NCBI GenBank assembly: GCA_018645325.1
Contig: JABGOU010000008.1
Span: forward strand, 1 to 64,000
Reading direction: 5' to 3'
DNA from: Desulfobacula sp.
Lineage (GTDB): Bacteria; Desulfobacterota; Desulfobacteria; Desulfobacterales; Desulfobacteraceae
DNA length: 64,000 nt
This document shows, one piece after another, positions 616 through 62,908 of the stretch (position 1 is the first letter of the stretch; every line of letters begins with the position of its first letter). Below the pieces are notes generated by a model. The model was not told where the DNA came from and ran no database searches. It worked only from the letters and a program-made list of their open reading frames with translations. A program made the translations under genes and the position numbers.

Positions 616-751
616 GTAATTGTTTAGCCCGTTAAAAGACGTTATCTCAGAGCCCTGTCTGATGGATATTTGCAGGAGGTTAAGCGTTTAGCATCGAACA
701 AAAATATCCATCGGACAGGGGCGGTTTCAAACATAAGAGCTGAATAGTTAA
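616..751 (+). mobile_element. IS66-like MITE, copy A
   Basis: This is a 136-bp element that begins GTAATTGTTTAGC and ends with the imperfect inverted tip. It is flanked by a perfect 8-bp direct repeat, AAATATTT (608-615 and 752-759). The middle is a long hairpin with ~20-bp arms (CCCTGTCTGATGGATATTTG and its complement). GTAA tips and 8-bp target duplications are hallmarks of the IS66 family. There is no coding capacity, so it would be non-autonomous. It lies 12 bp beyond the stop of the minus-strand response regulator and may act as its terminator. Confidence 0.85.
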
Positions 752-763
752 AAATATTTCTGA

Positions 764-1264
764 TTAGATATAATAATTTTTATCAAATTTATCCCAGAAT
801 TCCTTATCGTCATCTTTCCAGTCGTTACCAAAACGCTTGTTAAAATTATTTCCTAATTTTTCAAAGGAAAATTTCCAGGTGGATCTGCCTTGTTTGTGTT
901 TGCTCAAAATATCATTGATTAATGAATCAAGTACACTTAAATGTTCTTTTGAAAGATAGGAAATAGCACCCTTTTTAATGGACTCGATCAAGGATTTTGG
1001 ATTCATTGAGTTGGCAGTCAACATTATGGCAGGAATTTTTCTTTTTACACATTCTTCAAGAAGCGTAATCCCGTTGACTCCCATAATGTCCAGGATAGCA
1101 AGATCATATTGAGTCTTAAGAATTTTTTGGGAAGCAGTCTCGTAGTCCTGTGCAACGTCAACTATTGCCTCTTCCAGAATTTCCTGTATAGTTTCAATGA
1201 CATCCGATTCATCGTCAACTGCCAGTATGTGCTTATTTTTGAGAAAAGAATTGTTTTGTGTCAT
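764..1264 (-). CDS. single-domain response regulator with C-terminal tail
   Basis: This is a 166-residue receiver-domain protein. The acidic pair lies at D17-D18 in ILAVDDES, the phospho-acceptor is D59 in AILDIMG, the switch threonine is in IMLTANS and the conserved lysine is in YLSKEHL, so phosphorylation looks intact. A ~45-residue charged and aromatic tail follows, with no DNA-binding or enzymatic domain, so it is probably a phosphorelay intermediate or a protein-interaction regulator. The start has a good ribosome site (AAAGGAG) on the minus strand. No histidine kinase is adjacent, so the partner is unknown. Confidence 0.85.
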   Translation of the reverse strand: MTQNNSFLKNKHILAVDDESDVIETIQEILEEAIVDVAQDYETASQKILKTQYDLAILDIMGVNGITLLEECVKRKIPAIMLTANSMNPKSLIESIKKGAISYLSKEHLSVLDSLINDILSKHKQGRSTWKFSFEKLGNNFNKRFGNDWKDDDKEFWDKFDKNYYI

Positions 1265-1432
1265 TTTTTCTCCTTTTCAAAATATTATATAAAGGTATAA
1301 GCTGTATTTATTTTAAAATAATTTTGCTGATATCTTTTATTGACTCATAAATATCAGTTTGTTTATCCTTCTTATTAATTTTATAAACTAATTAAAAATT
1401 CTTGAAAAGTCAAGCTATTACAGGGGCCCTGA

Positions 1433-1640
1433 TCAACCATCAAGGTGCCACCTGCTGCGTTGACTGCAGTCGTTCCTTCCTGCAGAGTATGACTTATACG
1501 CATCTTTCGTCACTCCTTGTCGCCTTGCATCTGGCACCTTGCTGATGGCCAGGGATAGTGCGCAACCCCATGGCCCAGCCGGTAAATAAAAATTTGATGG
1601 TGGATTTGGGGGCAAACTGACCTGAACGGGTAATGGTCAC
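1433..1640. repeat. noncoding repeat-like segment shared with 14.6 kb
   Basis: The gap 1265-1757 holds no supported gene. It contains a hairpin-like pair, AAGGTGCCA near 1441 and TGGCACCTT near 1535. A ~43-bp stretch at 1568-1610 recurs nearly identically at 14629-14671 (core AATTTGATGGTGGATTTGGG). A 60-codon minus-strand frame crosses it, but its other half has no counterpart at the second site and no ribosome site, so I do not call it a gene. It is best read as a dispersed-repeat remnant of unknown family. Confidence 0.5.
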
Positions 1641-1757
1641 AAATATTTAATGCAGCATACAAAATTCTTCATAATTCGAGTTGATAATTATTTGCCACCG
1701 AGAATTGCTTAATAAGAATAATGGACAAAGCCAAGATTTTAAGATAGATGAGAATTC

Positions 1758-2099
1758 ATGTCGAAAAAATTTTTTAATAAAATCATGGTTGCTCTACATC
1801 GCAATCCCTGGATAAAAAAGCGCTGGGCCCAAAACTTCAATGCCTTGGAATCTGATAACATTCCCTGGACTCCTCTTAAAAAACCTCTTTCAAAATGCAA
1901 AATAGCATTATTGACGTCCGGAGGTGTTCATTTAAGGATGGATCATCTTTTTGATATGAAAGACAAAAATGGAGATCCTTTTAACAAAAAACAACAAACA
2001 GCTGTTTTCAAGGAGTGTTTAGAAGTACTTAAATCAGCTCAAAAACCAGGGATTATCGTTGATAGTACACATGGTTGGCCCCGACACAAGTTTAATTAA
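1758..2099 (+). pseudogene. GrdB-like selenoprotein B family remnant (internally deleted)
   Basis: This is a 113-residue frame whose N-terminal half has the motif IPWTPLKKPL followed by IALLTSGGVHLRMDHLFDM. That pattern is typical of the glycine/sarcosine/betaine reductase selenoprotein B family and its short relatives. The C-terminal part, AVFKECLEVLKSAQKPGIIVD, resembles the end of the same proteins. The central segment expected between them (normally ~60 or more residues) is missing, so the frame looks internally deleted. A MITE begins 10 bp after the stop. The region seems to be decaying. The family assignment comes from motif memory only. Confidence 0.5.
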
Positions 2100-2108
2100 A
2101 TACAAAAG

Positions 2109-2244
2109 GTAATTGTTCAGCTCGTTAAAAAAAAGTTATCCCCAAAGCCCTGTCTGATGGATATTTGCAGGAGGTTAAGCGAATAGCCTCGAAACAAATA
2201 TCCATCAGACAGGGTGATTTCAAGCATAAGAGCTGAATAATTAT
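2109..2244 (+). mobile_element. IS66-like MITE, copy B
   Basis: This 136-bp copy has GTAATTGTTCAGC at the left tip and a matching inverted right tip. Its flanks are TACAAAAG (2101-2108) and GACAAAAG (2245-2252), a 7/8 match to a target duplication. It sits between the GrdB-like remnant and rfaE2. The bases around it are also part of a longer 26-bp imperfect direct repeat (about 22/26 identical). Confidence 0.85.
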
Positions 2245-2449
2245 GACAAAAGTTTAATAAAAGACAAAAAGATTGACCATAAACAAGTGAAATTATATGT
2301 TTGGGAAAGTTTAATTCATGGCAGATATTTTAATCAGATAAAAAAGCTTCAAGGTTTGAAAAATAATTTTAAGGCAGACATTGTTCAGCTTGATGTGAAT
2401 ACTGTCAGAACATTAATCACGTGCAGGATAGACCGGAGACAAGAAACTT
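2245..2449 (+). other. open but unassigned stretch before rfaE2
   Basis: One plus-strand frame is open from the MITE end to just inside rfaE2 (about 69 codons, containing HKQVKLYVWESLIHGRYFNQ). It has no convincing start codon or ribosome site. It may be the tail of a gene broken by the MITE or by earlier decay. I cannot name a family. It also serves as leader for rfaE2. Confidence 0.3.
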
Positions 2450-2929
2450 ATGGATAAGCTTGCCAGTTTCTCAGAGATCAAAATATTATCCAGGCAATAC
2501 AAAGCTTCTGGTAAAACAATTGTATTTACCAATGGGTGTTTTGATATTATTCATGCAGGTCATGTAAAATACCTGAGCCAGGCTGCAAGTCTTGGTGATA
2601 TCCTTATTTTGGGTCTTAATTCAGATCTTTCCGTGAAAACCATCAAAGGAGAAAAAAGACCAGTGATTGGTCAGGATCATCGCTCAATTGTTGTGGCAGC
2701 CCTGGCATGTATTGACCATGTGGTATTGTTTGATGAGCCTGATCCCAAACTTTTGATTGAAACCATCTGTCCTGATGTACTGGTTAAAGGAGCAGACTGG
2801 CAGGAAGATCAGATCATCGGAGCTGATTTTGTAAAAAAAAATGGGGGATATATCAAAAGAGTCTTTTTAGAACCAGATATTTCAACATCAAAAATTATAG
2901 AAAAAATTGGTAAGCTTTACTATGAATAA
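2450..2929 (+). CDS. rfaE2: D-glycero-beta-D-manno-heptose 1-phosphate adenylyltransferase
   Basis: This nucleotidyltransferase activates heptose-1-phosphate with ATP to give ADP-heptose for the lipopolysaccharide inner core. It is 159 residues long, the size of the stand-alone adenylyltransferase half of HldE; no kinase domain is fused. The signature TNGCFDIIHAGHVKYL contains the HxGH nucleotide-binding motif near the N-terminus. The conserved KGEKRPVI loop and a late VKKNGG motif follow. The kinase partner (rfaE1/hldA) must be elsewhere. Its stop overlaps the start of pgeF by 8 bases, so the two are probably translationally coupled. The call is firm. Confidence 0.92.
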   Translation: MDKLASFSEIKILSRQYKASGKTIVFTNGCFDIIHAGHVKYLSQAASLGDILILGLNSDLSVKTIKGEKRPVIGQDHRSIVVAALACIDHVVLFDEPDPKLLIETICPDVLVKGADWQEDQIIGADFVKKNGGYIKRVFLEPDISTSKIIEKIGKLYYE

Positions 2930-3695
2930 AACCCATATCAAACTTTATGAGTTTGAACATTTTAAAAACCATCCAGGTATTGTTCATGGCATATTTACAA
3001 GGGCAGGCGGAACAAGTACAGGCGCTTTTGATTCTCTTAATATTGGTATCAATTCAGGAGATGACCAGTCGACCATAGCAAAGAACCGGGATATTATTAT
3101 CCAAAAAATGGGGAGCAAACCCTTTGTTTTTTTAAATCAGGTCCATAAAAGCGGTATTAAGGTTTTGGAAAAAGAGAAAACGGATTTGTTTAAAAAAAAA
3201 CGATCCAGTATTGAGGCCTATACTGCTGACAGCATTATTACAGATATAAAGGATGTGTTTCTTGTCATCCAGGTCGCTGATTGCCAGGCTGTAATGCTGT
3301 ATGACCCCCAAAAAAAAATAATTGCAAATATTCATTCAGGATGGAGGGGAAGTGTTAAGAATATTATTGGTAAAACCCTGGACAAAATGGGTCTTCAATT
3401 TGGGTGTCAGCCTGAAAATATCATTGCAGGTATTGCTCCCTCCCTTGGTCCCTGTTGTTCTGAATTTGTAAATTATAAGGATGAGATTCCCCAAAATCTA
3501 TGGAGATATAAAATTAAAGGTAAAGATTATTTTAATTTCTGGGAAATAAGCCGGGATCAGCTCAGGGAAAAGGGCGTGAAAAAAAATAATATTCAAAATA
3601 TGGAAATCTGCACAAAATGTAATACAGAAATGTTTTATTCTTTTCGGAAAGAAAAAACAACAGGCAGGTTTGCCTGCGTGATTTCAATGGTTTAA
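2922..3695 (+). CDS. pgeF: peptidoglycan editing factor / laccase-domain purine nucleoside phosphorylase (YfiH family)
   Basis: This is a 257-residue cytoplasmic protein of the multicopper-oxidase-like laccase-domain family (YfiH/PgeF). Members have been described as purine nucleoside phosphorylases and as editing factors that prevent wrong peptidoglycan precursors. Metal-site motifs are present: NQVHKSG, QVADCQAVML and HSGWRGSV, with a later GPCCSEF. I chose the ATG at 2922 (MNKTHIKL), which overlaps the rfaE2 stop, over an in-frame ATG 15 bases upstream that lies deeper in rfaE2. Length matches the family. The family call is firm; the physiological role here is inferred. Confidence 0.88.
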   Translation: MNKTHIKLYEFEHFKNHPGIVHGIFTRAGGTSTGAFDSLNIGINSGDDQSTIAKNRDIIIQKMGSKPFVFLNQVHKSGIKVLEKEKTDLFKKKRSSIEAYTADSIITDIKDVFLVIQVADCQAVMLYDPQKKIIANIHSGWRGSVKNIIGKTLDKMGLQFGCQPENIIAGIAPSLGPCCSEFVNYKDEIPQNLWRYKIKGKDYFNFWEISRDQLREKGVKKNNIQNMEICTKCNTEMFYSFRKEKTTGRFACVISMV

Positions 3696-3895
3696 TGAAT
3701 ATTGGATTCACAAAAAGATTTATCCGGCATGCAATTTAATACATACAATCTGATAAATGTAATTTGATATCTGATTGCAATAAACTCTGGATAAAAAAGA
3801 TGCTATTTTCACATTGACTTGAAATTCAGCATATGGTATTTGCTTTCAGGATAAATTGATCTGTATGGCCAGAGGGAAAATTATAAAGGCTTAAT

Positions 3896-4114
3896 ATGAA
3901 AAAAGAGACGGGCAAAACCATCAGAGAGCTTGGATATTTTGCCAGTCTGGGGATTTCAATAGCCCTTGCCATTTTCATCGGTCTTGGAATCGGACTTTGG
4001 CTGGATAAAAAATTTGGTACAGAGCCTGTTTTGTTACTTGTTGGTCTTGCATTCGGTATAGCCGCCGGATTCAGCAATATCTACAGAGCAGGGCAAAAGG
4101 GAAAAAAGTTTTAA
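3896..4114 (+). CDS. atpZ: AtpZ-like small F0 accessory protein
   Basis: This is a 72-residue protein with two predicted membrane helices, FASLGISIALAIFIGLGIGL and VLLLVGLAFGIAAGFSNIY, joined by the loop WLDKKFGTEP. The layout and the LGxxLDKxFGT-type loop fit the AtpZ/AtpI-like family encoded at the head of ATP synthase operons, implicated in assembly or cation supply. It overlaps atpI (ATGC at 4114). It is the first gene of the F0 cluster and is preceded by ~200 bases without a gene. No strong promoter could be picked out there. Confidence 0.8.
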   Translation: MKKETGKTIRELGYFASLGISIALAIFIGLGIGLWLDKKFGTEPVLLLVGLAFGIAAGFSNIYRAGQKGKKF

Positions 4115-4515
4115 TGCAGGACCTGCAAAAGATAGTTGATTTTATAACAAGGTCTAACTGGTTGATTCTTCTGCTGGGCGGAATGATCGGCCTTGTGATG
4201 ACCCCGATGAAATTTGCTCTGGGTATCATTCTTGGCGGCTTGATTGTTGCTGTCAATTTCCATCTTTTAAAGGGAACATTAAAAAAAATGTGCCATCCTG
4301 ACACTGTATCGGAAAAAGGACGGTCAATTGTCGGTAATGTCCTGGTTAAATATTATATTCGATTTGCCATAAGCGGGTTTTTGATCTTCCTGCTGATATC
4401 GAAACATATTGTTCATCCGGTAGGCCTTCTGGCAGGCCTTTCCGTAGTTGTTGCAAGTGTATTTTTGGCTACGGCACTTGAATTAAAAAAAATATTCTTC
4501 AAGGAGGCAGTATAA
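4114..4515 (+). CDS. atpI: ATP synthase subunit I-like protein
   Basis: This is a 133-residue membrane protein with four hydrophobic segments (about residues 15-30, 33-50, 82-97 and 101-122), fitting the ATP synthase I chain family (PF03899 type), which helps assemble the c-ring. It lies between the AtpZ-like gene and atpB. Its start overlaps the end of the preceding gene. The ribosome site of atpB (AAGGAGG at 4501-4507) is inside its 3' end, so the genes are co-transcribed and probably coupled. Sequence conservation in this family is weak, so position in the operon is a large part of the evidence. Confidence 0.8.
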   Translation: MQDLQKIVDFITRSNWLILLLGGMIGLVMTPMKFALGIILGGLIVAVNFHLLKGTLKKMCHPDTVSEKGRSIVGNVLVKYYIRFAISGFLIFLLISKHIVHPVGLLAGLSVVVASVFLATALELKKIFFKEAV

Positions 4516-4516
4516 A

Positions 4517-5206
4517 GTGGAGCATCCCTATTTGTTTATGACGTCATTGTTCGGAATATTTGGAATGGAAGAATGGGCTGCAGCTCATCCGCATGTTACC
4601 TATATGTGGCTGGCTATGGTCATTTTGATAGTTTTAGGTTGGCTGGGTGGAAAAAGTATTACCATGGTTCCCAAACCAGTACAGAATGTATTTGAAGTCC
4701 TGATATCAGGTCTTGAAGAATTTATGGTAGGCATAACCGGAGAAGAGGGCAGAAAATCTTTTCCTTTGTTATTGACTATTTTTCTATTTGTTTTACTTGG
4801 CAACCTGTTTGGATTGATTCCCGGATTTTATCCGCCAACGGCCGCGATTAACACCACAGTGGCCCTGGCCCTTATTGCGGTAACATGGAGTCATGTGATT
4901 GGAATAAAAATGCACGGGATTAAATACATCAAACACTTTTTGGGGCCAGTACCTGCCTTGATGCCTTTGTTTCTGATTATAGAACTTATAGGTCATGCAG
5001 CACGCGTTTTATCCCTGACCCTGCGTCTTTTCGGAAACATGATGGGCCATGAACTTGTAGTTGGTATTTTACTCATGCTGGCCGGACCATTTTTAGTACC
5101 GCTTCCCATCATGGCCATGGGTATACTGGTCTCTCTGATCCAGGCAATCGTGTTCTTCCTGCTGCCCACCATGTATATTGCAGGGGCAATAGAAGAAGCA
5201 CATTAA
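4517..5206 (+). CDS. atpB: F0F1 ATP synthase subunit a
   Basis: This is the 229-residue membrane stator subunit that forms the ion half-channels against the c-ring. The start is GTG at 4517, with a strong AAGGAGG site. The essential arginine is R170 in the conserved SLTLRLFGNMMGHE. The upstream PFFLL-type region reads FPLLLTIFLFVLLGNLFGLI, and the C-terminal helix contains LIQAIVFFLLPTMYI. Five to six membrane spans are predicted. It is followed by atpE after a ~75-base spacer. No b, delta, alpha, gamma, beta or epsilon genes follow, so the F1 and stalk genes must be elsewhere. Confidence 0.95.
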   Translation: MEHPYLFMTSLFGIFGMEEWAAAHPHVTYMWLAMVILIVLGWLGGKSITMVPKPVQNVFEVLISGLEEFMVGITGEEGRKSFPLLLTIFLFVLLGNLFGLIPGFYPPTAAINTTVALALIAVTWSHVIGIKMHGIKYIKHFLGPVPALMPLFLIIELIGHAARVLSLTLRLFGNMMGHELVVGILLMLAGPFLVPLPIMAMGILVSLIQAIVFFLLPTMYIAGAIEEAH

Positions 5207-5280
5207 TACGAGTTTTACGGGATTTGGAAGAAGCCCCGTTATTTTATATTATTTTATTAAATTATAATAAGGAGTAAAAC

Positions 5281-5550
5281 ATGGAATTTCTAGTTGGTAG
5301 TGTATGGGCAGCAGGTCTTGCCATCGGTATCGCAGCTTTTGGTTGTGGTATTGGCCAGGGTTTGGGTTTAAACGGCGCAATGGCCGGTATTTCAAGAAAC
5401 CCTGAAGCAGCCGGTAAAATCCAGGTGAACATGCTGATCGGTCTGGCATTGATTGAGTCTCTTTGTATTTATGCACTTGTTGTTGCAATGATTCTTCTTT
5501 TTGTTCATCCTGCTATCGCACCTGCAGTTAAAGCACTTGGTGGACATTAA
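5281..5550 (+). CDS. atpE: F0F1 ATP synthase subunit c with Na+-type binding signature
   Basis: This is an 89-residue c-ring subunit: two membrane helices joined by the polar loop SRNPEA. The carboxylate is E59 in [10 protein letters not shown]26 (in GIGQG), E59, S60 and Y64 occupy exactly the spacing of Q32, E65, S66 and Y70 in the Na+-dependent Ilyobacter tartaricus c subunit (33 residues Q to E, 5 from E to Y). Strictly H+-binding c subunits generally lack this set. The enzyme is therefore predicted to be able to couple to Na+. The ribosome site is AAGGAG. A rho-independent terminator follows. Confidence 0.95.
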
Positions 5551-5585
5551 GCCATACAGCTTGAATTAGATAGATATTTTTAACA

Positions 5586-5622
5586 AAAAGGGTGTAAAAA
5601 TTTAATTTTTTACACCTTTTTT
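5586..5622 (+). terminator. rho-independent terminator after atpE
   Basis: The hairpin pairs AAAGGGTGTAAAAA with its complement TTTTTACACCTTT around a short AT loop and ends in a run of T. It is symmetric enough to act in both directions, so it may also end the convergent ACT-domain gene. The next element downstream is a separate 64-bp palindrome. Confidence 0.8.
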
Positions 5623-5642
5623 GTATCTGGGGTCATGTATCT

Positions 5643-5706
5643 GGGGTCAGGCTTGCCTTATTGTACTTATTTGTCAAAATAAGTACAATAAGGCAAGCCT
5701 GACCCC
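5643..5706. repeat. GGGGTCAGGC palindrome, copy 1
   Basis: This is a perfect inverted repeat with two 29-bp arms and a 6-base loop. The arm starts GGGGTCAGGCTTGCC. It ends 2 bp from the stop codon of the convergent ACT-domain gene. Related palindromes are at 12818, 20563, 22474 and 28526. The outer ~14 bp are conserved between copies while the inner arm varies, yet pairs perfectly within each copy. Confidence 0.85.
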
Positions 5707-5708
5707 GT

Positions 5709-6140
5709 TTAGAGGTTGCTGATTTCCTGGCTGGTGAAGACTTTAATATTTTTTGCGGCAAGAATTTTCAATGCCTTATCATGATCATCAAATCGGAAAA
5801 TCATTATGGCGTTTTTGGTTTTTGGATTTGCAAATGCATACATGTACTCCAGGTTGACTTCATTTTCTAAAAATGGGTCTAAAATTTTATTTAATCCGCC
5901 TGGCTCATCCATGACTTCAACAGCAAGAACCTGGGTTATTCCCACTTTAAACCCTTCTTTTTTTAATGCTTTTTCTGCTTTTTGATTATTGTCTACAATT
6001 AAGCGTAATACGCCAAAATCAGTGGTATCAGCAAGAGATAAAGCTCTTATATTGACATTGGCATCCCTTAAGATAGCAGTAACTTCTGCAAGTCTTCCTT
6101 CCTTGTTTTCAATGAATATGGATATTTGTTCAATAAACAT
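5709..6140 (-). CDS. tandem ACT-domain protein
   Basis: This is a 143-residue protein made of two ACT-type regulatory domains. The first runs over residues ~1-68 (QISIFIENKEGRLAEVTAIL, with ANVNIRALSLADTTDFGVLR). The second runs over ~72-140 (DEPGGLNKILDPFLENEVNL, then YAFANPKTKNAIMIFRF). ACT domains bind amino acids or other small ligands. Stand-alone tandem ACT proteins like this are often encoded near phenylacetate-CoA ligases or branched-chain acid genes, but here it precedes nothing of that kind directly; a PaaK-like gene lies 57 kb away. It follows the crotonase gene by 18 bases, so the two are likely co-transcribed. Ligand unknown. Confidence 0.85.
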   Translation of the reverse strand: MFIEQISIFIENKEGRLAEVTAILRDANVNIRALSLADTTDFGVLRLIVDNNQKAEKALKKEGFKVGITQVLAVEVMDEPGGLNKILDPFLENEVNLEYMYAFANPKTKNAIMIFRFDDHDKALKILAAKNIKVFTSQEISNL

Positions 6141-6158
6141 GGTGGAAACTCCTTTTGT

Positions 6159-6947
6159 CTAATACAGTTTTCCTTTAAACACGGGTTTTCTTTTTTCAAG
6201 AAAGGCATTGGTTCCTTCCTTTGCATCTTCACTTGCCATATTAAGACCAAAGACATCATTTTCAATCCTGCATCCGGTTTCGAGGTCGGCATTCAGACCT
6301 GATTGAATGACTTCTTTTGCAGATCTTAAGGCTACCTTTCCTTTAGTGGCAATGAGGCCGGCTGTTTTTAAAACATTTTCCATAAGCTTGTCAGGTTCAC
6401 ATACTTTATTGACAATACCATATTCCAGGGCTGTTTGAGCATTAATATTTTTGCCGGTAAAAATCATTTCTTTTGCAAGGTTTTCACCAATTCGTCTTGC
6501 AAGCCTCTGTGTCCCTCCGAATCCGGGAATCAATCCCAGGTTGATTTCTGGCAGGCCAAAAAGAGCTTTGTTTGAAGCATAAATAAAATCACAGCCAAGG
6601 GCCGCTTCCAGGCCTCCGCCCAGGGCAAATCCGTTTACAGCTGCAATGGCCGGGATGGGAAGGTCTTCAATTTTTGAAAAAACCTTCTGCCCTTTGCGGG
6701 AAAAACTTTTTCCTTCAAGGGGGTTCATTTTCACAAGTTCAGCAATATCCGCTCCTGCAACAAATGCTTTGCCGCCTGTGCCGGTCAGTATGAGAACCCT
6801 AATATCTTTATTGTCTCTTATTTGATCCAGGGCAATATCCAACTCATCAAAAAGCGCATTATTTAGTGCATTCATCGCTTTTGGACGGTTAAAAAACAAG
6901 GTTGCAATCGAGTTGTCAACCTCAAGGATAATGTTTTCAAAAGACAT
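6159..6947 (-). CDS. enoyl-CoA hydratase / crotonase family protein
   Basis: This 262-residue crotonase-fold enzyme probably hydrates a 2-enoyl-CoA (beta-oxidation or crotonyl-CoA step). The oxyanion-hole region GKAFVAGADIAEL and the segment AAVNGFALGGGLEAALGCD are typical. Both catalytic glutamates are present: one in GGGLEAAL, the other in LPEINLGLIPGFGGTQRL. Length is standard for short-chain enoyl-CoA hydratases. A good AAAGGAG site precedes the ATG. It sits between the amidase and the ACT protein on the minus strand. Substrate chain length cannot be read from sequence alone. Confidence 0.9.
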   Translation of the reverse strand: MSFENIILEVDNSIATLFFNRPKAMNALNNALFDELDIALDQIRDNKDIRVLILTGTGGKAFVAGADIAELVKMNPLEGKSFSRKGQKVFSKIEDLPIPAIAAVNGFALGGGLEAALGCDFIYASNKALFGLPEINLGLIPGFGGTQRLARRIGENLAKEMIFTGKNINAQTALEYGIVNKVCEPDKLMENVLKTAGLIATKGKVALRSAKEVIQSGLNADLETGCRIENDVFGLNMASEDAKEGTNAFLEKRKPVFKGKLY

Positions 6948-6968
6948 GGTTATCTCCTTTAGATAAAA

Positions 6969-8690
6969 TTATAATTGTTTTGGATTTGTTGCGTTTATAT
7001 ATTTTTCAATTCCATCAGTAATTGTTGTGGCAATGGCTGTCTGGTAGGAATCGCTCATGAGTCGTTTGCATTCTGTCTTGTTAGAGATAAAGGATGTTTC
7101 AATCAGGATAGAAGGCATTCTGGCACCCAGCAGAACATAAAAAGGAGCCTGCTTAACACCTAGATTATTTATCCCTGAATATTTTTTCCTCATACCCTTT
7201 ATAAAATTATTCTGCACTAGATTTGCAAGCCGTGTGGATTCTTCAATTTTTGTATTTTGGATCAAATCACTCAAAATTAAATCCAGATCAGAGATGTTTT
7301 TTTCAGATGTTGCATTTTCCCTTGCTGCAACGGCAATGGCCTGTTTATCCGTGGCAAGGTTTAAAATATAGGTTTCAATACCTTTTAATTTTCTGTTTTT
7401 AGCCGCATTAACATGAAGAGATATAAAAAGATCTGCTTTCTTTGTATTGGCTATGGCAGTCCTTTCTTCAAGTGTCAGCTTTTTATCCTTGTACCTTGTC
7501 AGCAATACCGTACATTTTAATCTCTGCCTGAGAGTTACAGCCAGTTTTTTTGCCATTTTCAGGACAATGTCTTTTTCCCAGACATTCTTATAATATCCCG
7601 GAGCTCCGGGGTCAGAGCCGCCATGCCCCGGGTCAATGACTATTTTTCTAACCCCGAGTGCAAATTGTCTTGCAATATCAGATGATTTTAAATTATCTGT
7701 TGAAAGTCTGGAGGTTTTCCCGGATTTTTCAGAGGCTGCCACTTTTGGAGGAGAAGATGAGGCAGGCGATCCATTAGATCCTTTTCCCCAGACATCAATG
7801 ACAATCCTGAAAGGATCCTTTAAAGAAAATATTTTATAATTTTCAAATGATTTAATATCCACCACAACCCTTACAGTATGGGGAAGGTGCTGGCCTGCCC
7901 GGGCCTGTTTTAAAAGAGTGTCATTGATGGGAGTGTGTTCTGCAACGCCTTTTCCAAGCTTTGTCTTTTCAATATCAATATACAATCGTTGCAAAGGTTT
8001 ATTGATATAGGGATCTTTTTTTAAGAGTCTGTGGGAATACTTCCTTTCGCTTTCTGCATTGATAACAATTCTTGTGTATTCAGGGTTGGACCAGAACCTG
8101 AGATCTGTAATAGTGGTATCCCTGGAAACATTGTCATAAGATGATCCAAATTTTTCGGGTTTGTTTTTTTTCTTAACAGTGACTTCATTGCTTTGAACAA
8201 ATTTTTTGATCAAGACATTATTTTTAGACAGACTTTTTTTAGATCGTATGTGACGAATTTTTTTAACAGAAAAATTTGGGTTATCCGTTATGGTTTTAAG
8301 CATTGACTTAGCACGGCCTGCGTATACACTTTTGGGATAGTTGTTCTGGAGACTTGCAAGAAGGTCTGCTGCCTGGCTTTCATGACTCTGTTTCCCGGAT
8401 AATTTGGACAGGGTTGTATAAAGTTTGGCTGCTTTATACATGCCTGCCGGTGCCCATGAGTCCTTGGGATGAAGTCGATATATGATTTCATACCGGCTGA
8501 TGCAATTGAGCCATTCGTTTTCTTTTTTCTGCTTGGATGCGGAATGTCTCAGTTTTTTATAGCAGGCATCAGCTTCCATATATTTTTGTTTTGCACTGTC
8601 TGCAAACCCATTTACTGTGAAAATAAAAACATATGCAAAGATGAAATGTATGAGAAAAATCTGCAGTATAGATTTTTTAAATGTTACCAT
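6969..8690 (-). CDS. N-acetylmuramoyl-L-alanine amidase with AMIN domain
   Basis: This is a 573-residue periplasmic cell-wall hydrolase that cleaves the amide bond between MurNAc and the stem peptide at division. The N-terminus has a signal segment (ILQIFLIHFIFAYVFIFTV). A helical TPR-like region follows (~residues 30-120), then an AMIN domain (~190-290, ITDLRFWSNPEYTRIVI) for septal targeting. The C-terminal Amidase_3 domain runs from ~350: KIVIDPGHGGSDPG, then LFISLHVNA and SILIETSFISN, which supply the zinc His/Glu/His and the catalytic Glu. It is longer than E. coli AmiC because of the helical insert. mutS ends 4 bp upstream. Confidence 0.92.
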   Translation of the reverse strand: MVTFKKSILQIFLIHFIFAYVFIFTVNGFADSAKQKYMEADACYKKLRHSASKQKKENEWLNCISRYEIIYRLHPKDSWAPAGMYKAAKLYTTLSKLSGKQSHESQAADLLASLQNNYPKSVYAGRAKSMLKTITDNPNFSVKKIRHIRSKKSLSKNNVLIKKFVQSNEVTVKKKNKPEKFGSSYDNVSRDTTITDLRFWSNPEYTRIVINAESERKYSHRLLKKDPYINKPLQRLYIDIEKTKLGKGVAEHTPINDTLLKQARAGQHLPHTVRVVVDIKSFENYKIFSLKDPFRIVIDVWGKGSNGSPASSSPPKVAASEKSGKTSRLSTDNLKSSDIARQFALGVRKIVIDPGHGGSDPGAPGYYKNVWEKDIVLKMAKKLAVTLRQRLKCTVLLTRYKDKKLTLEERTAIANTKKADLFISLHVNAAKNRKLKGIETYILNLATDKQAIAVAARENATSEKNISDLDLILSDLIQNTKIEESTRLANLVQNNFIKGMRKKYSGINNLGVKQAPFYVLLGARMPSILIETSFISNKTECKRLMSDSYQTAIATTITDGIEKYINATNPKQL

Positions 8691-8693
8691 ATC

Positions 8694-19154: not shown

Positions 19155-19289
19155 GTAATTATTCAACTCTTGCGCTTGAACCCGCCCTGTCTGATGGATA
19201 TTTGTTTCGATGCTAAACGCTTAACCTCCTGCAAATATCCATCAGACAGGGCTTTGGGGATAATTTTTTTTAACGGGCTGAACAATTAC
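19155..19289 (-). mobile_element. IS66-like MITE, copy C (inside the end of hutI)
   Basis: This 135-bp copy is in reverse orientation and flanked by a perfect 8-bp target duplication, AAAATTGT (19147-19154 and 19290-19297). Its right 48 bp (19242-19289) are translated as the last 15 codons and the stop codon of hutI. Confidence 0.9.
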
Positions 19290-20525: not shown

Positions 20526-20562
20526 TTATTCTTTCCCTTCATTGATTGAGGTCACATTGATT

Positions 20563-20626
20563 GGGGTCAGGCTTCGCTTATTGTGGTTATTGAACTCAAT
20601 AACCACAATAAGCGAAGCCTGACCCC
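20563..20626. repeat. GGGGTCAGGC palindrome, copy 3
   Basis: This is a perfect palindrome with two 31-bp arms around a 2-base centre; it starts GGGGTCAGGCTTCGC. It lies between hutU and hutI. Right after it, short GACCCCGAAGATTGA units are tandemly repeated (about 20621-20660), as if the end had been duplicated. It could attenuate read-through from hutU into hutI. Confidence 0.85.
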
Positions 20627-20669
20627 GAAGATTGATGACCCCGAAGATTGACCCCGAAGATTACGAAAA

Positions 20670-22473: not shown

Positions 22474-22664
22474 GGGGTCAGGCTTGCGTAGTTGCGTTGT
22501 AATTGTTCAGCCCGTTAAAAAAAGCTATCCCCAAAGCCCTGTCTGATGGATATTTGCATGAGGTTAAGCGAATAGCCTCGAAACAAATATCCATCAGACA
22601 GGGCGGGTTCAAGCGTAAGAGCTGAATAATTATGTTGCGTTTATGAAAATGCAAGCCTGACCCC
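22474..22664. repeat. GGGGTCAGGC palindrome, copy 4, split by a MITE
   Basis: The left arm GGGGTCAGGCTTGCG continues into GTTGCGTT. The MITE follows, then a second GTTGCGTT and the right part ending GCAAGCCTGACCCC. The duplicated GTTGCGTT is the 8-bp target site, so the palindrome was there before the MITE. Confidence 0.85.
22499..22633 (+). mobile_element. IS66-like MITE, copy D (nested in a palindrome)
   Basis: This is a 135-bp element with a GTAATTGTTCAGC left tip and a perfect 8-bp target duplication, GTTGCGTT (22491-22498 and 22634-22641). It lies in the hutU-hutC intergenic region, between the operator and hutC, so it may insulate the two divergent genes. Confidence 0.9.
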
Positions 22665-31586: not shown

Positions 31587-31663
<77 letters not shown>

Positions 31664-33410: not shown

Positions 33411-33506
33411 AAAGCCAATCTTGCACTGTAATTTTTAGTTTTCACTTGCCCCTAAAGCAGAATTTTAAAATTATATTTAGTTAAATTATTTTGAGGAGGC
33501 ACAAAG

Positions 33507-33563
33507 AATTTTCTTTAAATATATTGAAATATATTATAACAAAAGAAGGAAACATTCGGCCAA
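33507..33563 (+). repeat. IS3-type transposase tail fragment, copy 1
   Basis: These 57 bp are repeated almost exactly at 35121-35177. Both translate as FFKYIEIYYNKRRKHSAKG, the hallmark C-terminal end of IS3-family OrfB transposases (usually YI-x(3)-YN-x-RR-x-H-S). Only the tail remains. The two copies lie in direct orientation 1.6 kb apart. Confidence 0.75.
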
Positions 33564-33641
33564 GGGATTTCTCTTTAGAACTCTTATTATTTTGCTCCCC
33601 CCGATATATGAACCAGAGCCGGAATCATAAGCCATTTTTCC

Positions 33642-34815: not shown

Positions 34816-35498
34816 GTTGACAAAACACAGTGTCGTCCGATTACTATTAGTCTACTCCCTACGCTAGATTTAGTGAGTTTGCGTGGTTCGTGCATTTCAG
34901 CAACGGCATCGTCGTCTACTACAGTAAGTCATATAGTTATTATGTACGGGCCGTGCGTGCCTTTGATAGTTTCAAGAGTTTTCAGCATGCCTCGGGTATA
35001 CTTTAACTTTTCATGGAAATCTGTTTTGAGTTGTGTTGGTATATTGAAGATTCCAAACTGTGGATTAAGTCTATAATCGCTTAGGATGATTCAGAAATTC
35101 ATGGTGGTCAGTGACAAAACAATTTTCTTTAAATATATTGAAATATATTATAACAAAAGAAGGAAACATTCCGCCAAAGGCAACCGCCTGCTCATAGTGA
35201 GCAGAAATGGGCACAATAACAAGTTTTATTCAGACTTGGGACGGAGAAAAGGTTACGCTGGAACAAAAAGATATCGTGGAGGTGTTAAAGGCTCAAAGCA
35301 CAGAGAACCAGGATCGAATAGAACTGTCAAAAGCGATCCAGATCATGGAAGATACTCCAAAAATTAAAATCACACTGCCTTCCAACCTCATCTGAGTAGG
35401 CCGATTCAGGGAAAATTATAAACAGGGTAAATACAATTTTAAAAAATTAAACTCAAAACGATTATTTTTTTTATAAATAGAAAGGAGAATTGTGAACC
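34816..35498. other. debris region with second IS3 tail fragment
   Basis: No well-supported gene. 34816-35085 has several frames but nothing recognisable. 35121-35177 is the second copy of the IS3 OrfB tail. A 62-codon frame at 35207-35395 (MGTITSFIQTWDGEKVTLEQ...) lacks a clear ribosome site, so I give it only a slight chance of being real. The last ~100 bases are the leader of the SH3 gene, with AGGAG at ~35482. Confidence 0.45.
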
Positions 35499-48250: not shown

Positions 48251-48456
48251 AGGATTCACTCAAAAATAATAGTAATTGTTCAGCCCGTTAAAAAAAATCA
48301 TCCCCAAAGCCTTGTCTGATGGATATTTGCAGGAGGTTAAGCGAATAGCCTCGAAACAAATATCCATCAGACAGGGCGGGTTCGAGCGCAAGAGCTGAAT
48401 AATTACAAATAACTTTACATTTTCAAAAATCGGTAATTAATTTTTGAGTGAACCCT
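48251..48456. repeat. third palindrome family, copy 1 (split by a MITE)
   Basis: The left arm AGGATTCACTCAAAAAT (48251-48267) matches the complement of the right arm ATTTTTGAGTGAACCCT (48440-48456) with one mismatch. A MITE (48272-48406) sits between them. An uninterrupted relative lies at 60628-60676. Both lie just upstream of a plus-strand operon. Confidence 0.7.
48272..48406 (+). mobile_element. IS66-like MITE, copy E
   Basis: This is a 135-bp element with GTAATTGTTCAGC and an inverted TGAATAATTAC tip. Its flanks, AAATAATA and AAATAACT, match 6/8, which suggests an older insertion. It is inside the third-family palindrome and 60 bp upstream of the second acyl-CoA synthetase operon. Confidence 0.85.
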
Positions 48457-54090: not shown

Positions 54091-54208
54091 AAAAAAAAAT
54101 TATCCCCAAAGCCTTGCCTGATGGATATTTGCAGGCGGTTAAGCGTTTAGCATCGAAACAAATATCCATCAGACAGGGCGGATTCAAGCGTAAGAGCTGA
54201 ATAATTAC
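54091..54208 (+). mobile_element. IS66-like MITE, copy F (5'-truncated)
   Basis: The left tip (GTAATTGTTCAGCCCGTT) is missing; the element starts within the A-run before TTATCCCC. The rest, including the internal hairpin (CCTTGCCTGATGG ... CATCAGACAGGG) and the right tip TGAATAATTAC, is present. It lies ~90 bp upstream of the hydroxyacid-oxidase-like gene. No target duplication can be seen because the left end is lost. Confidence 0.8.
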
Positions 54209-55452: not shown

Positions 55453-55472
55453 AACTAAATAAAGGAGGAAAA

Positions 55473-58672: not shown

Positions 58673-58691
58673 TTATTTTTTCCTCCTGCAG

Positions 58692-58850: not shown

Positions 58851-59056
58851 ATTATTATTCTCCAATTATAAATTAAATATTTTTTGGTCAAGCACTAAAT
58901 AATTAACTAAAGTCATTTTAGTTTTTTTTAAATGATGCAAAGACTGTACCTTAAATTTCAAGTTTTATTCCTTATAAAAAGGGTTTTAACTTGGAGTATA
59001 TTATTATAGTATAAGATGCTTAAAATCAATGGATCATTTATTCAAAAGAGTGGAAC

Positions 59057-60430
59057 ATGAGTCATAATGTTTATATAAAACGAACAAAAATCAAAGCACC
59101 AGTGGAAAAGCTTTTTGCCTGGCATGCAAGAGATGGAGCCATATCAAGACTTACACCGCCATGGGCACCCTTGAAAATGATCTGGCGAAGCGGCCATGGG
59201 ATTCAAAAGGGAGTAAAAATAGCATTTCGGATAAGCCTTTTTAAGGTATCCATGATCTGGGAGGCAGAACATATAGAATACCTGGAAAACAAAGTGTTTA
59301 AAGATCGGCAGGTTAAAGGCCCTTTTTCCAAATGGGAACATACTCACAGGTTTATAGCCCATGGCCCACAAAATTCAATCATGGAAGATAAGGTTGAATT
59401 TAAACTTCCCTTTGGATTTTTAAGCCGGCCTTTTTACAGGTTTGCCAAAAAAGAATTTGAAAGAATGTTCAGATACAGGCACAGGGTACTTAAATATGAT
59501 CTTGAAAACCATGTGGACAAAACCCCTAAAAAAACAATTCTTATTTCAGGCTCTTCCGGAACCATGGGAAGTATATTGGTTCCACTCTTAAGAACCCTGG
59601 GTCATGATGTGATAAGGCTTGTAAGAAAAAAAGAAAACCTTTTAAAAGATGAGCTTTTCTGGGATCCTTATAAAGGAATCTTGAACCTGGAAAATAAAGG
59701 ACCCATTGATGCCGTCATAAATTTAAACGGTGTTGATATCTCAAGGGGCAGGTGGACAAAAAAACAAAAACAAAGGATTATTGACTCCAGAGTTTTTCCA
59801 ACCCGGCTGCTTGTTGAGAAAATCAAAGATCTTGATCATAAACCTGAGGTCTTTATTTCATCTTCTGCAATAGGCTTTTATGGCGAAAGAGAAGATAAGA
59901 CCTTAAACGAAACATCCAAAATGGGAGATTGTTTTATTTCCAGGGTTTGCAAAAAGTGGGAACATGCATCCATGGATGCCCAAAAGGCAGGGATCAGGAC
60001 CATTCAGCTCAGGACCGGTGTCGTGCTTACCCCGGCAGGTGGTGCACTCAAAAGAATGGAACTGCCTTTTAAAACAGGCTGCGGTGTAAGACTTTCCCAC
60101 GGCAGGCAATATATGAGCTGGATCAGTATGGATGATGCAGTATCAGGCATATTATACATATTAGGGCATGAAAAAATCAGGGGACCTGTAAATCTGGTAT
60201 CTCCCAATCCTGTAAACAATAAGACCTTTTCAAAGATATTGGCAGGTATTTTTTCAAAAAAAGTATTATTTGTCATGCCCAGATTTATAGCTCTTGCTCT
60301 TTGGGGGGAACTTGGAAAAGAAACCCTTTTGACCAGTACAAGGGTGAAACCTGAAAAGCTTCTGGTCAATGGGTTTTCGTTTCAGCATGAATCGCTTTTG
60401 CCGGCATTGAAGGATATGCTTGGCAGATAA
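59057..60430 (+). CDS. SRPBCC-TIGR01777 fusion protein
   Basis: This is a 457-residue protein. Residues ~1-150 form an SRPBCC (START-like) ligand-binding domain (KAPVEKLFAWHARDGAISRL, then FSKWEHTHRF). Residues ~157-455 are a TIGR01777 epimerase-like domain: ILISGSSGTMGSILVPLLR, VINLNGVDISRGRWTKKQK, FISSSAIGFYGERED and MSWISMDDAVSGILYI, with the C-terminal DUF1731 part. The domain order equals the long form of this family. It pairs with the single-domain paralogue at 46.5 kb. Function unknown; a hydrophobic ligand is likely bound by the N-domain. Confidence 0.88.
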   Translation: MSHNVYIKRTKIKAPVEKLFAWHARDGAISRLTPPWAPLKMIWRSGHGIQKGVKIAFRISLFKVSMIWEAEHIEYLENKVFKDRQVKGPFSKWEHTHRFIAHGPQNSIMEDKVEFKLPFGFLSRPFYRFAKKEFERMFRYRHRVLKYDLENHVDKTPKKTILISGSSGTMGSILVPLLRTLGHDVIRLVRKKENLLKDELFWDPYKGILNLENKGPIDAVINLNGVDISRGRWTKKQKQRIIDSRVFPTRLLVEKIKDLDHKPEVFISSSAIGFYGEREDKTLNETSKMGDCFISRVCKKWEHASMDAQKAGIRTIQLRTGVVLTPAGGALKRMELPFKTGCGVRLSHGRQYMSWISMDDAVSGILYILGHEKIRGPVNLVSPNPVNNKTFSKILAGIFSKKVLFVMPRFIALALWGELGKETLLTSTRVKPEKLLVNGFSFQHESLLPALKDMLGR

Positions 60431-60442
60431 AATTTTAAATTT

Positions 60443-60576
60443 GTAATTGTTCAGCCCGTTAAAAAAGTTATCCCCAAAGCCCTGTCTGATGGATATTTAC
60501 AGGAGGTTAAGCGAATAGCCTCGAAACAAGTATCCATCAGACAGGGCGGTTTCAAGCGTAAGAACTGAATAATTAC
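60443..60576 (+). mobile_element. IS66-like MITE, copy G
   Basis: This is a 134-bp copy with GTAATTGTTCAGC and TGAATAATTAC tips. Flanking TTAAATTT and GAAAATTT match 6/8. It begins 12 bases after the TIGR01777 stop and may serve as that gene's terminator. Confidence 0.85.
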
Positions 60577-60627
60577 GAAAATTTTTTTAAATGAAAAATA
60601 ATAAATAAAAATAAAAGGTAAAATAGC

Positions 60628-60676
60628 TAAGGATCCGCTCAAAAATTGGTAATTAGTTTTTGAGTGGGACCCTAAG
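60628..60676. repeat. third palindrome family, copy 2 (intact)
   Basis: CTAAGGATCCGCTCAAAAA is followed by a short AT spacer and TTTTTGAGTGGGACCCTAAG, an imperfect palindrome of ~49 bases. It ends 11 bases before the ATG of the membrane-protein gene, so its right arm and the following AAGGAAAA form the leader and ribosome site. Confidence 0.7.
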
Positions 60677-60687
60677 GAAAATCTAAA

Positions 60688-61782
60688 ATGAATATCAAAT
60701 TAAAAACTCTTTTTTCTTTTTTAATGATTACAGCGCTTGTTTTCGGGTTTATCCATGTTTATTTCCCGGCTGATAATTATAGTTTTGAAAGGCTTCACAT
60801 TTTCCTTTTTAATCTTTGTACAGGAGGAAGCATTCTTTTGTACTATACCCAGGGAAGAAAGAAAGTATCCAAAACCATCAAGTTTTTTTTCCTGGGGTCA
60901 TTAATTTATGCATTTTCAGCCTTTTTTAAAATCTATCCAATTACCATACTTGTCTCAGTACCTCTTTTTATACTTGTTGAAAAAATTCGAATTAAAAGAT
61001 TTTCTTTGTTTCCTGTTATTTTTTTTAAATTTAAAGAACCCGTATCAGAAAAATTCCACCAGGCATCTTTGCTCTGCCTCTCCATAGGGATTGTCATGGC
61101 AGGCATGGTTATTTTAAACAATGAATATTTTAAATTTGTTACCATGGAAAAATTGACCCTGAACACATTTTTCTTAGGATTTTCTTTTCCTTTGTCCCTG
61201 ATAACGCTTTCCCTTGTTTTCGCCATGCTTAAAAAAATAGAAACTTCATCAATCAAGTTACTTATGGAAATTTGTTTCTGGACCATAACCCTTGGAGTGA
61301 TAATATTTTTTATTTTTATTTTACTGGAAAAATTTATTCCCCAGATTTTTGTTACTCTGGCACTTTTTACAGCAGTGGTCCTTGTTTTTTATCTTTATTC
61401 AAAATTTGCAGATAGAACTCAACAAAAATTTTTTTTAACCTCGGGTATAGGGTTTTTAATTTTTACAGCCATAACAGGTATTGCATACATATTCATGCAG
61501 ATGTCTGAAGGGTATGATCCTCAAAAAATAAAATGGCTTCTGCACATTCATGTTTTTGCCTCCTTATATGGCTGGAATCTCTGCGGCCTGTCAATTATCT
61601 GCAGGTTTGGTGATTTCCCCATAAAACTTCATTCCACAAGTGTGATTTTTATGCACTGGCTTACGGCAATTGTTTTAGCTCCGCTAGGTATTTTTTATGG
61701 ATGGTTTGCAATCTTTGCCATCATTGGATATTCATTTATAGTGCTGACATTATTTTTTAGCAGTAATAAGGATTCAAGATGA
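60688..61782 (+). CDS. polytopic membrane protein of unknown function
   Basis: This is a 364-residue, very hydrophobic protein with about ten to eleven membrane helices. Two late helices hold histidines in WLLHIHVFASLYGWN and STSVIFMHWLTAIVL, spaced as if for heme or metal, so a distant relation to the heme-copper or NnrS-like membrane proteins is conceivable, but I cannot assign it. Its stop overlaps the DHH gene start by 4 bases, so the two are coupled. Confidence 0.6.
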   Translation: MNIKLKTLFSFLMITALVFGFIHVYFPADNYSFERLHIFLFNLCTGGSILLYYTQGRKKVSKTIKFFFLGSLIYAFSAFFKIYPITILVSVPLFILVEKIRIKRFSLFPVIFFKFKEPVSEKFHQASLLCLSIGIVMAGMVILNNEYFKFVTMEKLTLNTFFLGFSFPLSLITLSLVFAMLKKIETSSIKLLMEICFWTITLGVIIFFIFILLEKFIPQIFVTLALFTAVVLVFYLYSKFADRTQQKFFLTSGIGFLIFTAITGIAYIFMQMSEGYDPQKIKWLLHIHVFASLYGWNLCGLSIICRFGDFPIKLHSTSVIFMHWLTAIVLAPLGIFYGWFAIFAIIGYSFIVLTLFFSSNKDSR

Positions 61783-62768
61783 CTAACAAGGAAAAACTAG
61801 GCCGGTTTTTAAGCCTTTTTAAGGGCAGTTCAAAAGTGCTGGTTGTGATCAATGCTGATCCTGATTCCATTGCAAGTGCAATGGCTGTTAAAAGACTTTT
61901 ATGGAGAAAGGTAAGCGAGGTCGGCATAGCCTATTTTAATAAAATAAGCAGGCCCGATAATCTGGCCATGATCGAATATACTGATCCGGGCATAGTAAGG
62001 ATAGAGGATATAAAAAAAGAAAATTTTAATAGTTTTATAGTGGTGGATTCCCAGCCTGATCATAATGAAATATTTGGACAATTTGACTATGATGCCATTA
62101 TCGATCACCATGCTTTGACCTGTGACAATGCAATATATGCCGATATTCGACCAGATTACGGGGCATGCTCCACCATATTGACTGAATATATCAAGTCAAA
62201 AAAAATAAAACCCTCTTCCAAGCTTGCTGCAGCCCTGATGCTGGGGATTAAAACCGATACTTCGGATTTTACCAGGCAGGCAAGCCTGAAAGATATAAGG
62301 GCCTTTCAATACCTTTATAGATTTGCAGATAATAATATTGTTACCAAAGTTGAAAGAGCAGCATTGACCCAGGAAGATCTGGATTTTTTAGGCAATGCCA
62401 TAAAACACAGAAAACTTATGCACAACAGGGTTTTTTTCCATGCGGGAAATATAACCAAGCCGGATGAACTGGTTGTGGTGGCAGACTTTTTTTTAACCCT
62501 TGTAATGGTTAACTGGAGTATTATTTCAGGTATTTATGAAAAAAAACTTATTATTATTGTTCGAAATGATGGCCTGAGAAAAGGTGCGGGAAATGCTGTT
62601 AAAGAAGCCTTTTCCATGTATGGTTCAGCAGGCGGTCACAAGACAATGGCCAGGGCAGAGCTTGATTTAACGCTGATTCGAAAACAAATTGGGGCGGTTA
62701 ATAAAAAAGCCCTTGGAGACTGGATTATATCGGTTATTGAAAAGACAGCCGGCAAGAAAATAGAATAA
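61779..62768 (+). CDS. DHH-family phosphoesterase
   Basis: This is a 329-residue DHH/DHHA1 phosphoesterase related to NrnA-type nucleases or cyclic-dinucleotide phosphodiesterases. Motif I reads VINADPDSIASAMAVK, motif II VVDSQPDHNE, and motif III is DAIIDHHAL with the DHH triad; DYGACSTILTEY follows. The C-terminal DHHA1 part ends with the glycine-rich SAGGHKTMARAEL. The histidine usual at the head of motif I (HxNPDxD) is replaced by valine, so metal binding may differ. It overlaps the membrane-protein gene. A MITE begins 6 bases after its stop. Confidence 0.85.
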   Translation: MTNKEKLGRFLSLFKGSSKVLVVINADPDSIASAMAVKRLLWRKVSEVGIAYFNKISRPDNLAMIEYTDPGIVRIEDIKKENFNSFIVVDSQPDHNEIFGQFDYDAIIDHHALTCDNAIYADIRPDYGACSTILTEYIKSKKIKPSSKLAAALMLGIKTDTSDFTRQASLKDIRAFQYLYRFADNNIVTKVERAALTQEDLDFLGNAIKHRKLMHNRVFFHAGNITKPDELVVVADFFLTLVMVNWSIISGIYEKKLIIIVRNDGLRKGAGNAVKEAFSMYGSAGGHKTMARAELDLTLIRKQIGAVNKKALGDWIISVIEKTAGKKIE

Positions 62769-62773
62769 TTTTT

Positions 62774-62908
62774 GTAATTATTCAGATCTTGCGCTTGAAC
62801 CCGCCCTGTCTGATGGATATTTGTTTCGAGGCTATTCACTTAACTTCCTGCAAATATCCATCAGACAGGGCTTTGGGGATAATTTTTTTTAACGGGCTGA
62901 ACAATTAC
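62774..62908 (-). mobile_element. IS66-like MITE, copy H
   Basis: This is a 135-bp copy in reverse orientation with a perfect 8-bp target duplication, TAATTTTT (62766-62773 and 62909-62916). It sits between the DHH gene and the phenylacetate-CoA ligase-like gene, which starts 33 bases further on. Confidence 0.9.

What the first reader, a model, noticed from the sequence alone, without database searches (positions are those of the whole stretch)
616..62908. Eight-copy ~135-bp element with IS66 hallmarks (GTAA tips, 8-bp target duplications)
Seen: copies at 616, 2109, 19155, 22499, 48272, 54091 (truncated), 60443 and 62774. Seven have both GTAATT(A/G)TTCAG tips. Four keep perfect 8-bp duplications (AAATATTT, AAAATTGT, GTTGCGTT, TAATTTTT); one matches 7/8 and two 6/8. 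Known: IS66 elements begin GTAA and duplicate 8 bp. Inference: this is an IS66-derived MITE that moved recently in this genome. All copies share a conserved internal hairpin with nested GAGG/CCTC stem, which suggests selection on structure.
Basis: partly seen in the sequence, partly recalled or inferred. Interest (0 to 1): 0.8.

Follow-up and report, generated by a model that had tools for sequence, protein, structure and literature searches.

The report
IS66-type MITE family in Desulfobacula
The repeated 135-base sequence is a small non-coding jumping element, present in roughly 140 copies in this sulfate-reducing bacterium, that most likely borrows the enzyme of a known family of mobile elements (IS66); it is a clean new example of a familiar kind.

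Summary
In detail: eight copies of a ~135-bp element lie where stated, with the stated duplications. Genome-wide there are about 140 (284 hairpin-arm matches). I recovered 115; 104 have both tips, and 69 of these keep a perfect 8-bp duplication and 21 keep 7/8 (shuffled mean 3.2, maximum 11). Related species show single-target empty sites for copies 62774 and 22499.

The IS66 reading is supported and sharpened to the one-gene (ISBst12-like) subgroup. A same-genus element of this type has tips GTAATTATTCAGC/GTAACTATTCAGC and an 8-bp duplication. In 86 family genomes, the MITE's 15-base right tip occurs only in the four MITE-bearing genomes and at five other sites, all beside remnants of such a transposase.

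Two reader claims fail. The nested GAGG/CCTC stem is intact in 51 of 110 copies. Selection on structure is not shown: 2 compensated changes against 1.45 shuffled. No matching transposase was found in MITE-bearing assemblies (one IS66 match there unexamined), and beyond the tips the MITE does not resemble the IS above chance. New member of a known kind.

The parts
616..751 (+). MITE copy 1 (136 bp), TTTAGCATC loop; duplication AAATATTT at 608-615 / 752-759 (8/8)
2109..2244 (+). MITE copy 2 (136 bp), AATAGCCTC loop; TACAAAAG / GACAAAAG (7/8), 10 bp after an ORF that ends at 2099
19155..19289 (-). MITE copy 3 (135 bp), TTTAGCATC loop; AAAATTGT duplication (8/8); element absent at the aligned place in G011, G014 and G024 (gap 33-41 bp against 175-185 in the window)
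22499..22633 (+). MITE copy 4 (135 bp), inserted in the loop of a REP-like palindrome (GGGGTCAGGC...GCCTGACCCC, about 22474-22664); GTTGCGTT duplication (8/8); G011 has the palindrome with a single GTTGCGTT and no MITE
48272..48406 (+). MITE copy 5 (135 bp), AAATAATA / AAATAACT (6/8), nested in a copy of a second element (tips at 48252-48267 and 48440-48455)
54091..54208 (+). MITE copy 6, left tip missing, right tip GTAATTATTCAG at 54197-54208
60443..60576 (+). MITE copy 7 (134 bp), TTAAATTT / GAAAATTT (6/8); element absent in G005, G023 and G024
62774..62908 (-). MITE copy 8 (135 bp), TAATTTTT duplication (8/8); G023 has a single TAATTTTT and no MITE
60479..60547 (+). Example of the internal hairpin: arms of about 20 bp (CCTGTCTGATGGATATTTG and its complement), 27-nt loop with GAGG..CCTC
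   Evidence: RNA fold of the copy -56.3 kcal/mol, z -9.6

Best explanation
A MITE: a non-coding ~135-bp element whose two tips (left GTAATTGTTCAGC, right GTAAYTATTCAGCTC) are the terminal inverted repeats of the one-gene, ISBst12-like branch of the IS66 family. A transposase of that branch, made by an intact IS elsewhere (in this cell now or in the past), binds the tips, moves the element and leaves an 8-bp duplication at AT-rich sites. It has spread to about 140 copies in this Desulfobacula genome and fewer in three related ones. Shown: repeats, tips, duplications, empty sites, tip identity with the IS, genus-restricted spread. Inferred: that this transposase does the moving, by what chemistry, and that the source was an IS copy at all. 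The large internal hairpin is part of the unit that spread, but nothing here shows that it does anything.
For: 104 of 115 recovered copies have both tips; 69 of these have 8/8 and 21 have 7/8 duplications, against a shuffled mean of 3.2 and maximum of 11 at 7/8 or better; 60 distinct octamers among the 69 perfect ones. Target bases 43% A, 47% T. Single-target empty sites: TAATTTTT in G023, GTTGCGTT in G011, AAAAATAA in Ca. D. maris for the copy on C85. Same-genus IS66 element G001:C168: 1,759 bp, one ORF of 471 aa (PF03050 E 9e-47, NF033517 E 1.6e-86), tips GTAATTATTCAGC / GTAACTATTCAGC, duplication TATAATTT 8/8. GTAAYTATTCAGCTC occurs exactly in 7 of 86 family genomes (reverse-pattern control 0): 4 carry the MITE, and the 5 sites in the other 3 lie beside 4 remnants of that transposase. 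Published ISDge4, an ISBst12-group IS66 element seen to transpose in Deinococcus, has a 449-aa single ORF, tips GTGACTACTCAGCA / GTAACTGCTCAGCA and an 8-bp repeat (PMC12898284, passages).
Against: No such transposase in the window's own assembly: 0 matches to the G001 protein, and the only PF03050 matches are two pieces of one broken gene on C106. The IS66 copies examined in the other MITE-bearing genomes (G014 C125 and C153, G021 C609 and C28) lack matching tips; G014 has a third match that I did not examine, G011 has none. The genomes are drafts (own: 157 contigs, 90% complete), in which repeated IS copies are often lost. Beyond 13-15 bp the ends do not resemble the IS ends above chance. The five outside tip sites lie beside remnants, none beside an intact gene.
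Confidence: 0.87

Rival explanations
1. The MITE is moved by a three-gene IS66 element (tnpA-tnpB-tnpC) of the genus, whose tips are GTAAATATTCGG.
For: Such tips match the MITE right tip at 10-11 of 13 positions; an element of this kind with an 8/8 duplication and 2,653 bp is in G008, and the MITE-bearing G014 has related transposases on C125 and C153.
Against: The one-gene elements match at 12-13 of 13, and the exact 15-base right tip occurs outside MITE genomes only beside the one-gene kind.
Confidence: 0.08
2. The mover belongs to another IS family that also makes 8-bp duplications (ISL3, IS1595 and IS256 are recalled examples) and the tip likeness to IS66 is convergent.
For: No matching IS66 transposase was found in the MITE-bearing assemblies, so the mover has not been seen.
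Against: 13-base identity of both tips with a same-genus IS66 that also makes an 8-bp duplication; 5 of 5 outside occurrences of the 15-mer lie beside IS66 transposase remnants. I did not run searches for other IS families.
Confidence: 0.05
3. The hairpin is kept by selection because, as RNA or as single-stranded DNA, it does something (terminator, RNase III site, help in transposition).
For: Very stable predicted fold on both strands (z -6.9 to -9.6). The arms are the same in the own, G021 and G014 consensus sequences except at the arm end, while other parts differ. Only 1 of 91 own right-half matches has the hairpin-less junction.
Against: 2 compensated double changes against a shuffled mean of 1.45 (863 of 2000 shuffles reach it). 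At least three copies that lost all or part of the hairpin persist with 7/8 duplications (C67, C103, C105). No orientation bias beside tandem genes (27 against 23). No run of T directly after the stem (read from the consensus).
Confidence: 0.12
4. Not mobile DNA: a repeated regulatory sequence or RNA gene spread by recombination.
For: Conserved stable hairpin, mostly between genes (93 of 99 copies tested).
Against: 8-bp duplications in 90 of 104 copies at 7/8 or better, empty sites, nesting in and by other repeats, no Rfam match at the copies.
Confidence: 0.01

Closest known systems
ISBst12 group of the IS66 family (example ISDge4, Deinococcus geothermalis; PMC12898284, passages seen)
   Same: Tips of the form GTAACT.CTCAGC and an 8-bp duplication; the same-genus element has one transposase ORF, as ISDge4 has.
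   Different: The MITE carries no gene, is 135 bp instead of about 1.7 kb, and its interior shows no likeness to the IS above chance.
High-copy bacterial MITEs, for example MITECca01 of Cardinium (169 copies, IS982 family; PMC9769881, passages seen)
   Same: Short non-coding element with IS tips, more than a hundred copies, mostly intergenic, nested in other mobile DNA.
   Different: Here the family is IS66 rather than IS982, and no intact parent IS was found in the assembly.
MITEPsy1 of Pseudomonas syringae (PMC3189936, passages seen)
   Same: Small MITE linked to an IS by near-identical terminal repeats; actively mobile.
   Different: It has 4-bp duplications and IS5-like tips; mobility was shown by experiment, here only inferred.
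Hairpin-forming bacterial repeats (NEMIS/Correia, ERIC, REP; recalled, no call)
   Same: Small repeated sequence with a strong hairpin in intergenic DNA.
   Different: NEMIS duplicate TA and REPs depend on a different class of enzyme (recalled); this one makes 8-bp duplications and has IS66 tips.

Membership tests
MITE | Short, non-coding, terminal inverted repeats, many dispersed copies | tested here: met
   91 of 101 simple copies with both tips are 133-136 bp... counted as 5+28+47+14 = 94 of 101; about 140 copies; inverted tips.
MITE | Target-site duplication and empty sites | tested here: met
   90 of 104 at 7/8 or better; single-target empty sites at three places.
MITE | Tips match an autonomous element that can supply transposase | tested here: met
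   G001:C168 in the same genus, 13 of 13 bases for the right tip, 12 of 13 for the left.
MITE | The autonomous partner is present in the same genome | tested here: inconclusive
   Not found in the draft assembly; draft assemblies often lose repeated IS copies.
   Consensus tips GTAATTGTTCAG and GTAATTATTCAG; IS66 elements here begin GTAA.
IS66 family | 8-bp target duplication | tested here: met
   8 bp for IS66 elements ISPpa5a and ISPpa7 in PMC3281130 (passages).
IS66 family | Encodes an IS66 transposase (PF03050) | tested here: not met
   The MITE is non-coding, so it is an IS66-type MITE and not itself an IS66 insertion sequence.
IS66, ISBst12 group (as the source of the transposase) | Single ORF element with tips like those of the MITE | tested here: met
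   G001:C168, one ORF of at least 80 aa (471 aa) in 1,759 bp. The group name is from PMC12898284 and recall; no ISfinder search was possible.
IS66, ISBst12 group | Its transposase moves the MITE | not testable with these tools
   Needs a transposition assay.
Structured RNA family | Match to a known Rfam family | tested here: not met
   Only a tRNA at 31587-31660 in the window.
Structured RNA family | Compensatory changes in the stem | tested here: not met
   2 compensated changes, shuffled mean 1.45.

The most novel reading that the evidence does not exclude
An IS66-type MITE that spread to about 140 copies because its hairpin helps it: the palindrome could be an acquired cis-acting part (for example a replication-fork or transposase-recruiting structure) that lets a 135-bp element use an ISBst12-like transposase better than the IS itself, even when the IS is rare or supplied from outside.
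Probability: 0.1. Interest if true: 0.55.

Novelty: new member of a known kind. Interest (0 to 1): 0.3.

Why it matters
It adds a well-documented, high-copy MITE tied to the ISBst12-like branch of IS66. In the held paper library I found no description of an IS66-derived MITE: two searches on IS66 with MITE terms gave 38 papers (20 listed) and 3 papers, and ISBst12 with MITE gave 0; I read passages of three of those papers, not all. About 0.4% of this genome is the element (about 140 x 135 bp in 4.39 Mb), so it explains many repeat breaks and intergenic differences between Desulfobacula species, and it gives ready insertion markers. It does not change what is known about how such elements work.

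Tried and rejected
Looked for right ends not followed by the hairpin in the own genome, hoping to find the full-length IS: among the loci searched only truncated or hairpin-less MITEs turned up. First look at 30 IS66 loci for matching tips: none found; these were mostly the higher-scoring kind of PF03050 match, and the matching one-gene element came from a second, chosen set. Sub-terminal homology between MITE and IS ends: not above chance. Hairpin arms inside IS loci: nothing better than 5 mismatches of 19. A 27-base partial match in another genus (G067) is not an element: no tips around it. Terminator role: no orientation bias (27 against 23), and only a mild avoidance of gene starts (17 within 30 bp of a 5' end, simulated mean 24.3, 8 of 500 simulations as low) with a slight excess near gene ends (44, simulated mean 37.9, 26 of 500 as high). 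Gene calls there were crude ORFs of 70 aa or more, not annotation. Strand bias of stem changes was looked at by eye and left, because inherited changes cannot be told from independent ones. Literature searches with GTAA as a whole word gave nothing.

Counts and drops: 116 hairpins included one duplicate at a locus edge; one search gives 115, of which 5 have long spans (insertions or two merged copies) and 110 are simple. Listings were cut, so about 25 of about 140 own copies were not examined. One own copy (L042, contig C30) is 100% identical over 861 bp to the Saanich Inlet MAG and may be cross-binned; it was kept in the counts.
Full report
What is in the window. The window is the first 64,000 bases of contig C136 of a 4,385,846-base draft genome in 157 contigs.

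How many. The 19-base arm occurs 144 times on one strand and 140 on the other with up to 2 mismatches, control 0; two arms per copy gives about 140 copies. The right end occurs 131 times. In the genus, 4 of 26 genomes have the right end: own 131, G021 39, G014 26, G011 2. In a wider search 5 of 145 genomes matched at E 0.001, the fifth (G067) being a 27-base chance-like match without tips. So the element is confined, in what was searched, to a few Desulfobacula.

Is it a transposable element. I recovered 115 distinct own-genome hairpins; 104 have both tips and none lacks the right tip. The 8 bases on the two sides agree 8/8 in 69, 7/8 in 21, 6/8 in 9, and less in 5; re-pairing sides at random gives 7/8 or better in 3.2 on average and 11 at most. 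The same holds in G021 (8 of 9 perfect), G014 (6 of 9 perfect, 3 at 7/8) and G011 (1 of 1). The perfect octamers are varied (60 kinds among 69) and 90% A+T.

Empty sites. At 62774 the window reads GAATAATTTTT[MITE]TAATTTTTTTTAT; G023 reads GAATAATTTTTTTTAAG, with one target. At 22499 the MITE sits in a REP-like palindrome; G011 has that palindrome with one GTTGCGTT. A copy on C85 has AAAAATAA on both sides and Ca. D. maris has it once. At 19155 and 60443 the element is absent from aligned relatives but the target bases have diverged. Some insertions are older than the species: the copy on C92 (L084) has a filled counterpart in SI073_bin145, and two Ca. D. maris contigs break at the place of the copy on C69.

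Which transposase. The own genome has only two PF03050 matches, pieces of one gene on C106 separated by three Phage_integrase-type genes, and nothing like the one-gene IS66. In the same genus, G001 has a complete element of 1,759 bp at L178:1598-3356: one ORF of 471 aa with DDE_Tnp_IS66 and DUF6444, tips GTAATTATTCAGC and GTAACTATTCAGC, flanked by TATAATTT twice. Related one-gene elements or fragments in the family carry GTAAYTATTCAGC or close variants, while three-gene IS66 elements read GTAAATATTCGG or GTAAGCG. The sharpest test is the 15-base right tip GTAAYTATTCAGCTC over 86 family genomes: 7 have it exactly, control 0. Four are the MITE genomes. The other five sites (G020 one, G049 one, G044 three) lie within about 100 bases of four remnants of this transposase, in three of the four just after its C-terminal codons and in G020 after a shortened remnant ending near residue 389. 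ISDge4, a published ISBst12-group element with tips GTGACTACTCAGCA and GTAACTGCTCAGCA and an 8-bp repeat, fits the same pattern (PMC12898284, passages).

What the interior is. Inside the tips the ends do not resemble the IS ends above chance in most of 16 comparisons (best 4/300 and 7/300 shuffles), and no IS locus examined contains the hairpin arms. The copy folds at -56.3 kcal/mol as RNA, z -9.6, and strongly on the other strand too. The loop comes in two main forms, AATAGCCTC (59 of 110) and TTTAGCATC (44 of 110); both GAGG and CCTC are intact in 51 of 110. In 133 hairpins from four genomes there are 65 left-arm and 111 right-arm changes, of which 2 are compensated, as expected by shuffling (mean 1.45; 863 of 2000 reach 2). 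Copies on C67, C103 and C105 have lost all or part of the hairpin yet keep 7/8 duplications. So the hairpin travels with the element, but selection on it is not shown.

Placement. Of 99 copies with enough flank, 6 lie in a crude ORF once joined, and 11 could not be classed. For 82 copies, placement beside tandem, convergent and divergent genes fits random AT-rich intergenic positions; starts of genes are mildly avoided, and there is no orientation bias. This is what purifying selection on a neutral passenger would leave.

Verdict. An IS66-type, ISBst12-like MITE family of Desulfobacula, spread to about 140 copies here. It is new as a named case, ordinary in kind. The missing partner in the MITE-bearing assemblies is the main gap.

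Noticed in passing
window 48252-48455; also L084, L076, L045, L049, L312: A second high-copy element with tips GGGTYCACTCAAAAAT (57 matches in the own genome, up to 1 mismatch, control 1; 55 in G013, 23 in G021), apparently duplicating 3 bp (TAA/TTA). It sits inside hairpin loops of the IS66-type MITE (L076, L084), and in the window the IS66-type MITE sits inside it; short tip-like scars remain in L045 and L049.
   Followed up: partly
window 5642-5707, 20562-20627, 22474-22664: REP-like palindromes TGGGGTCAGGCTT...AAGCCTGACCCC, each with a different inner palindrome; relatives have matches to the 20562 copy on both strands. A RAYT-type source is recalled, not tested.
   Followed up: no
L085 (G000:C106:1-12000), 3115-7828: The genome's only IS66 transposase matches are two pieces of one broken gene, separated by three adjacent minus-strand genes that all match Phage_integrase.
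   Followed up: partly
L042 (G000:C30:780-1640) against L230:3614-4474: 861 bases including a MITE copy are 100% identical to the Saanich Inlet MAG SI073_bin145, where other shared regions are about 80-90% identical: cross-binning or recent transfer.
   Followed up: no
window 33503-33566 and 35117-35180: A 64-base direct repeat, 95% identical, 1.6 kb apart.
   Followed up: no
L252 (SI073_bin145) opposite window 62770-62924: At the place of copy 8 this relative has about 1 kb of other sequence between the two aligned flanks.
   Followed up: no
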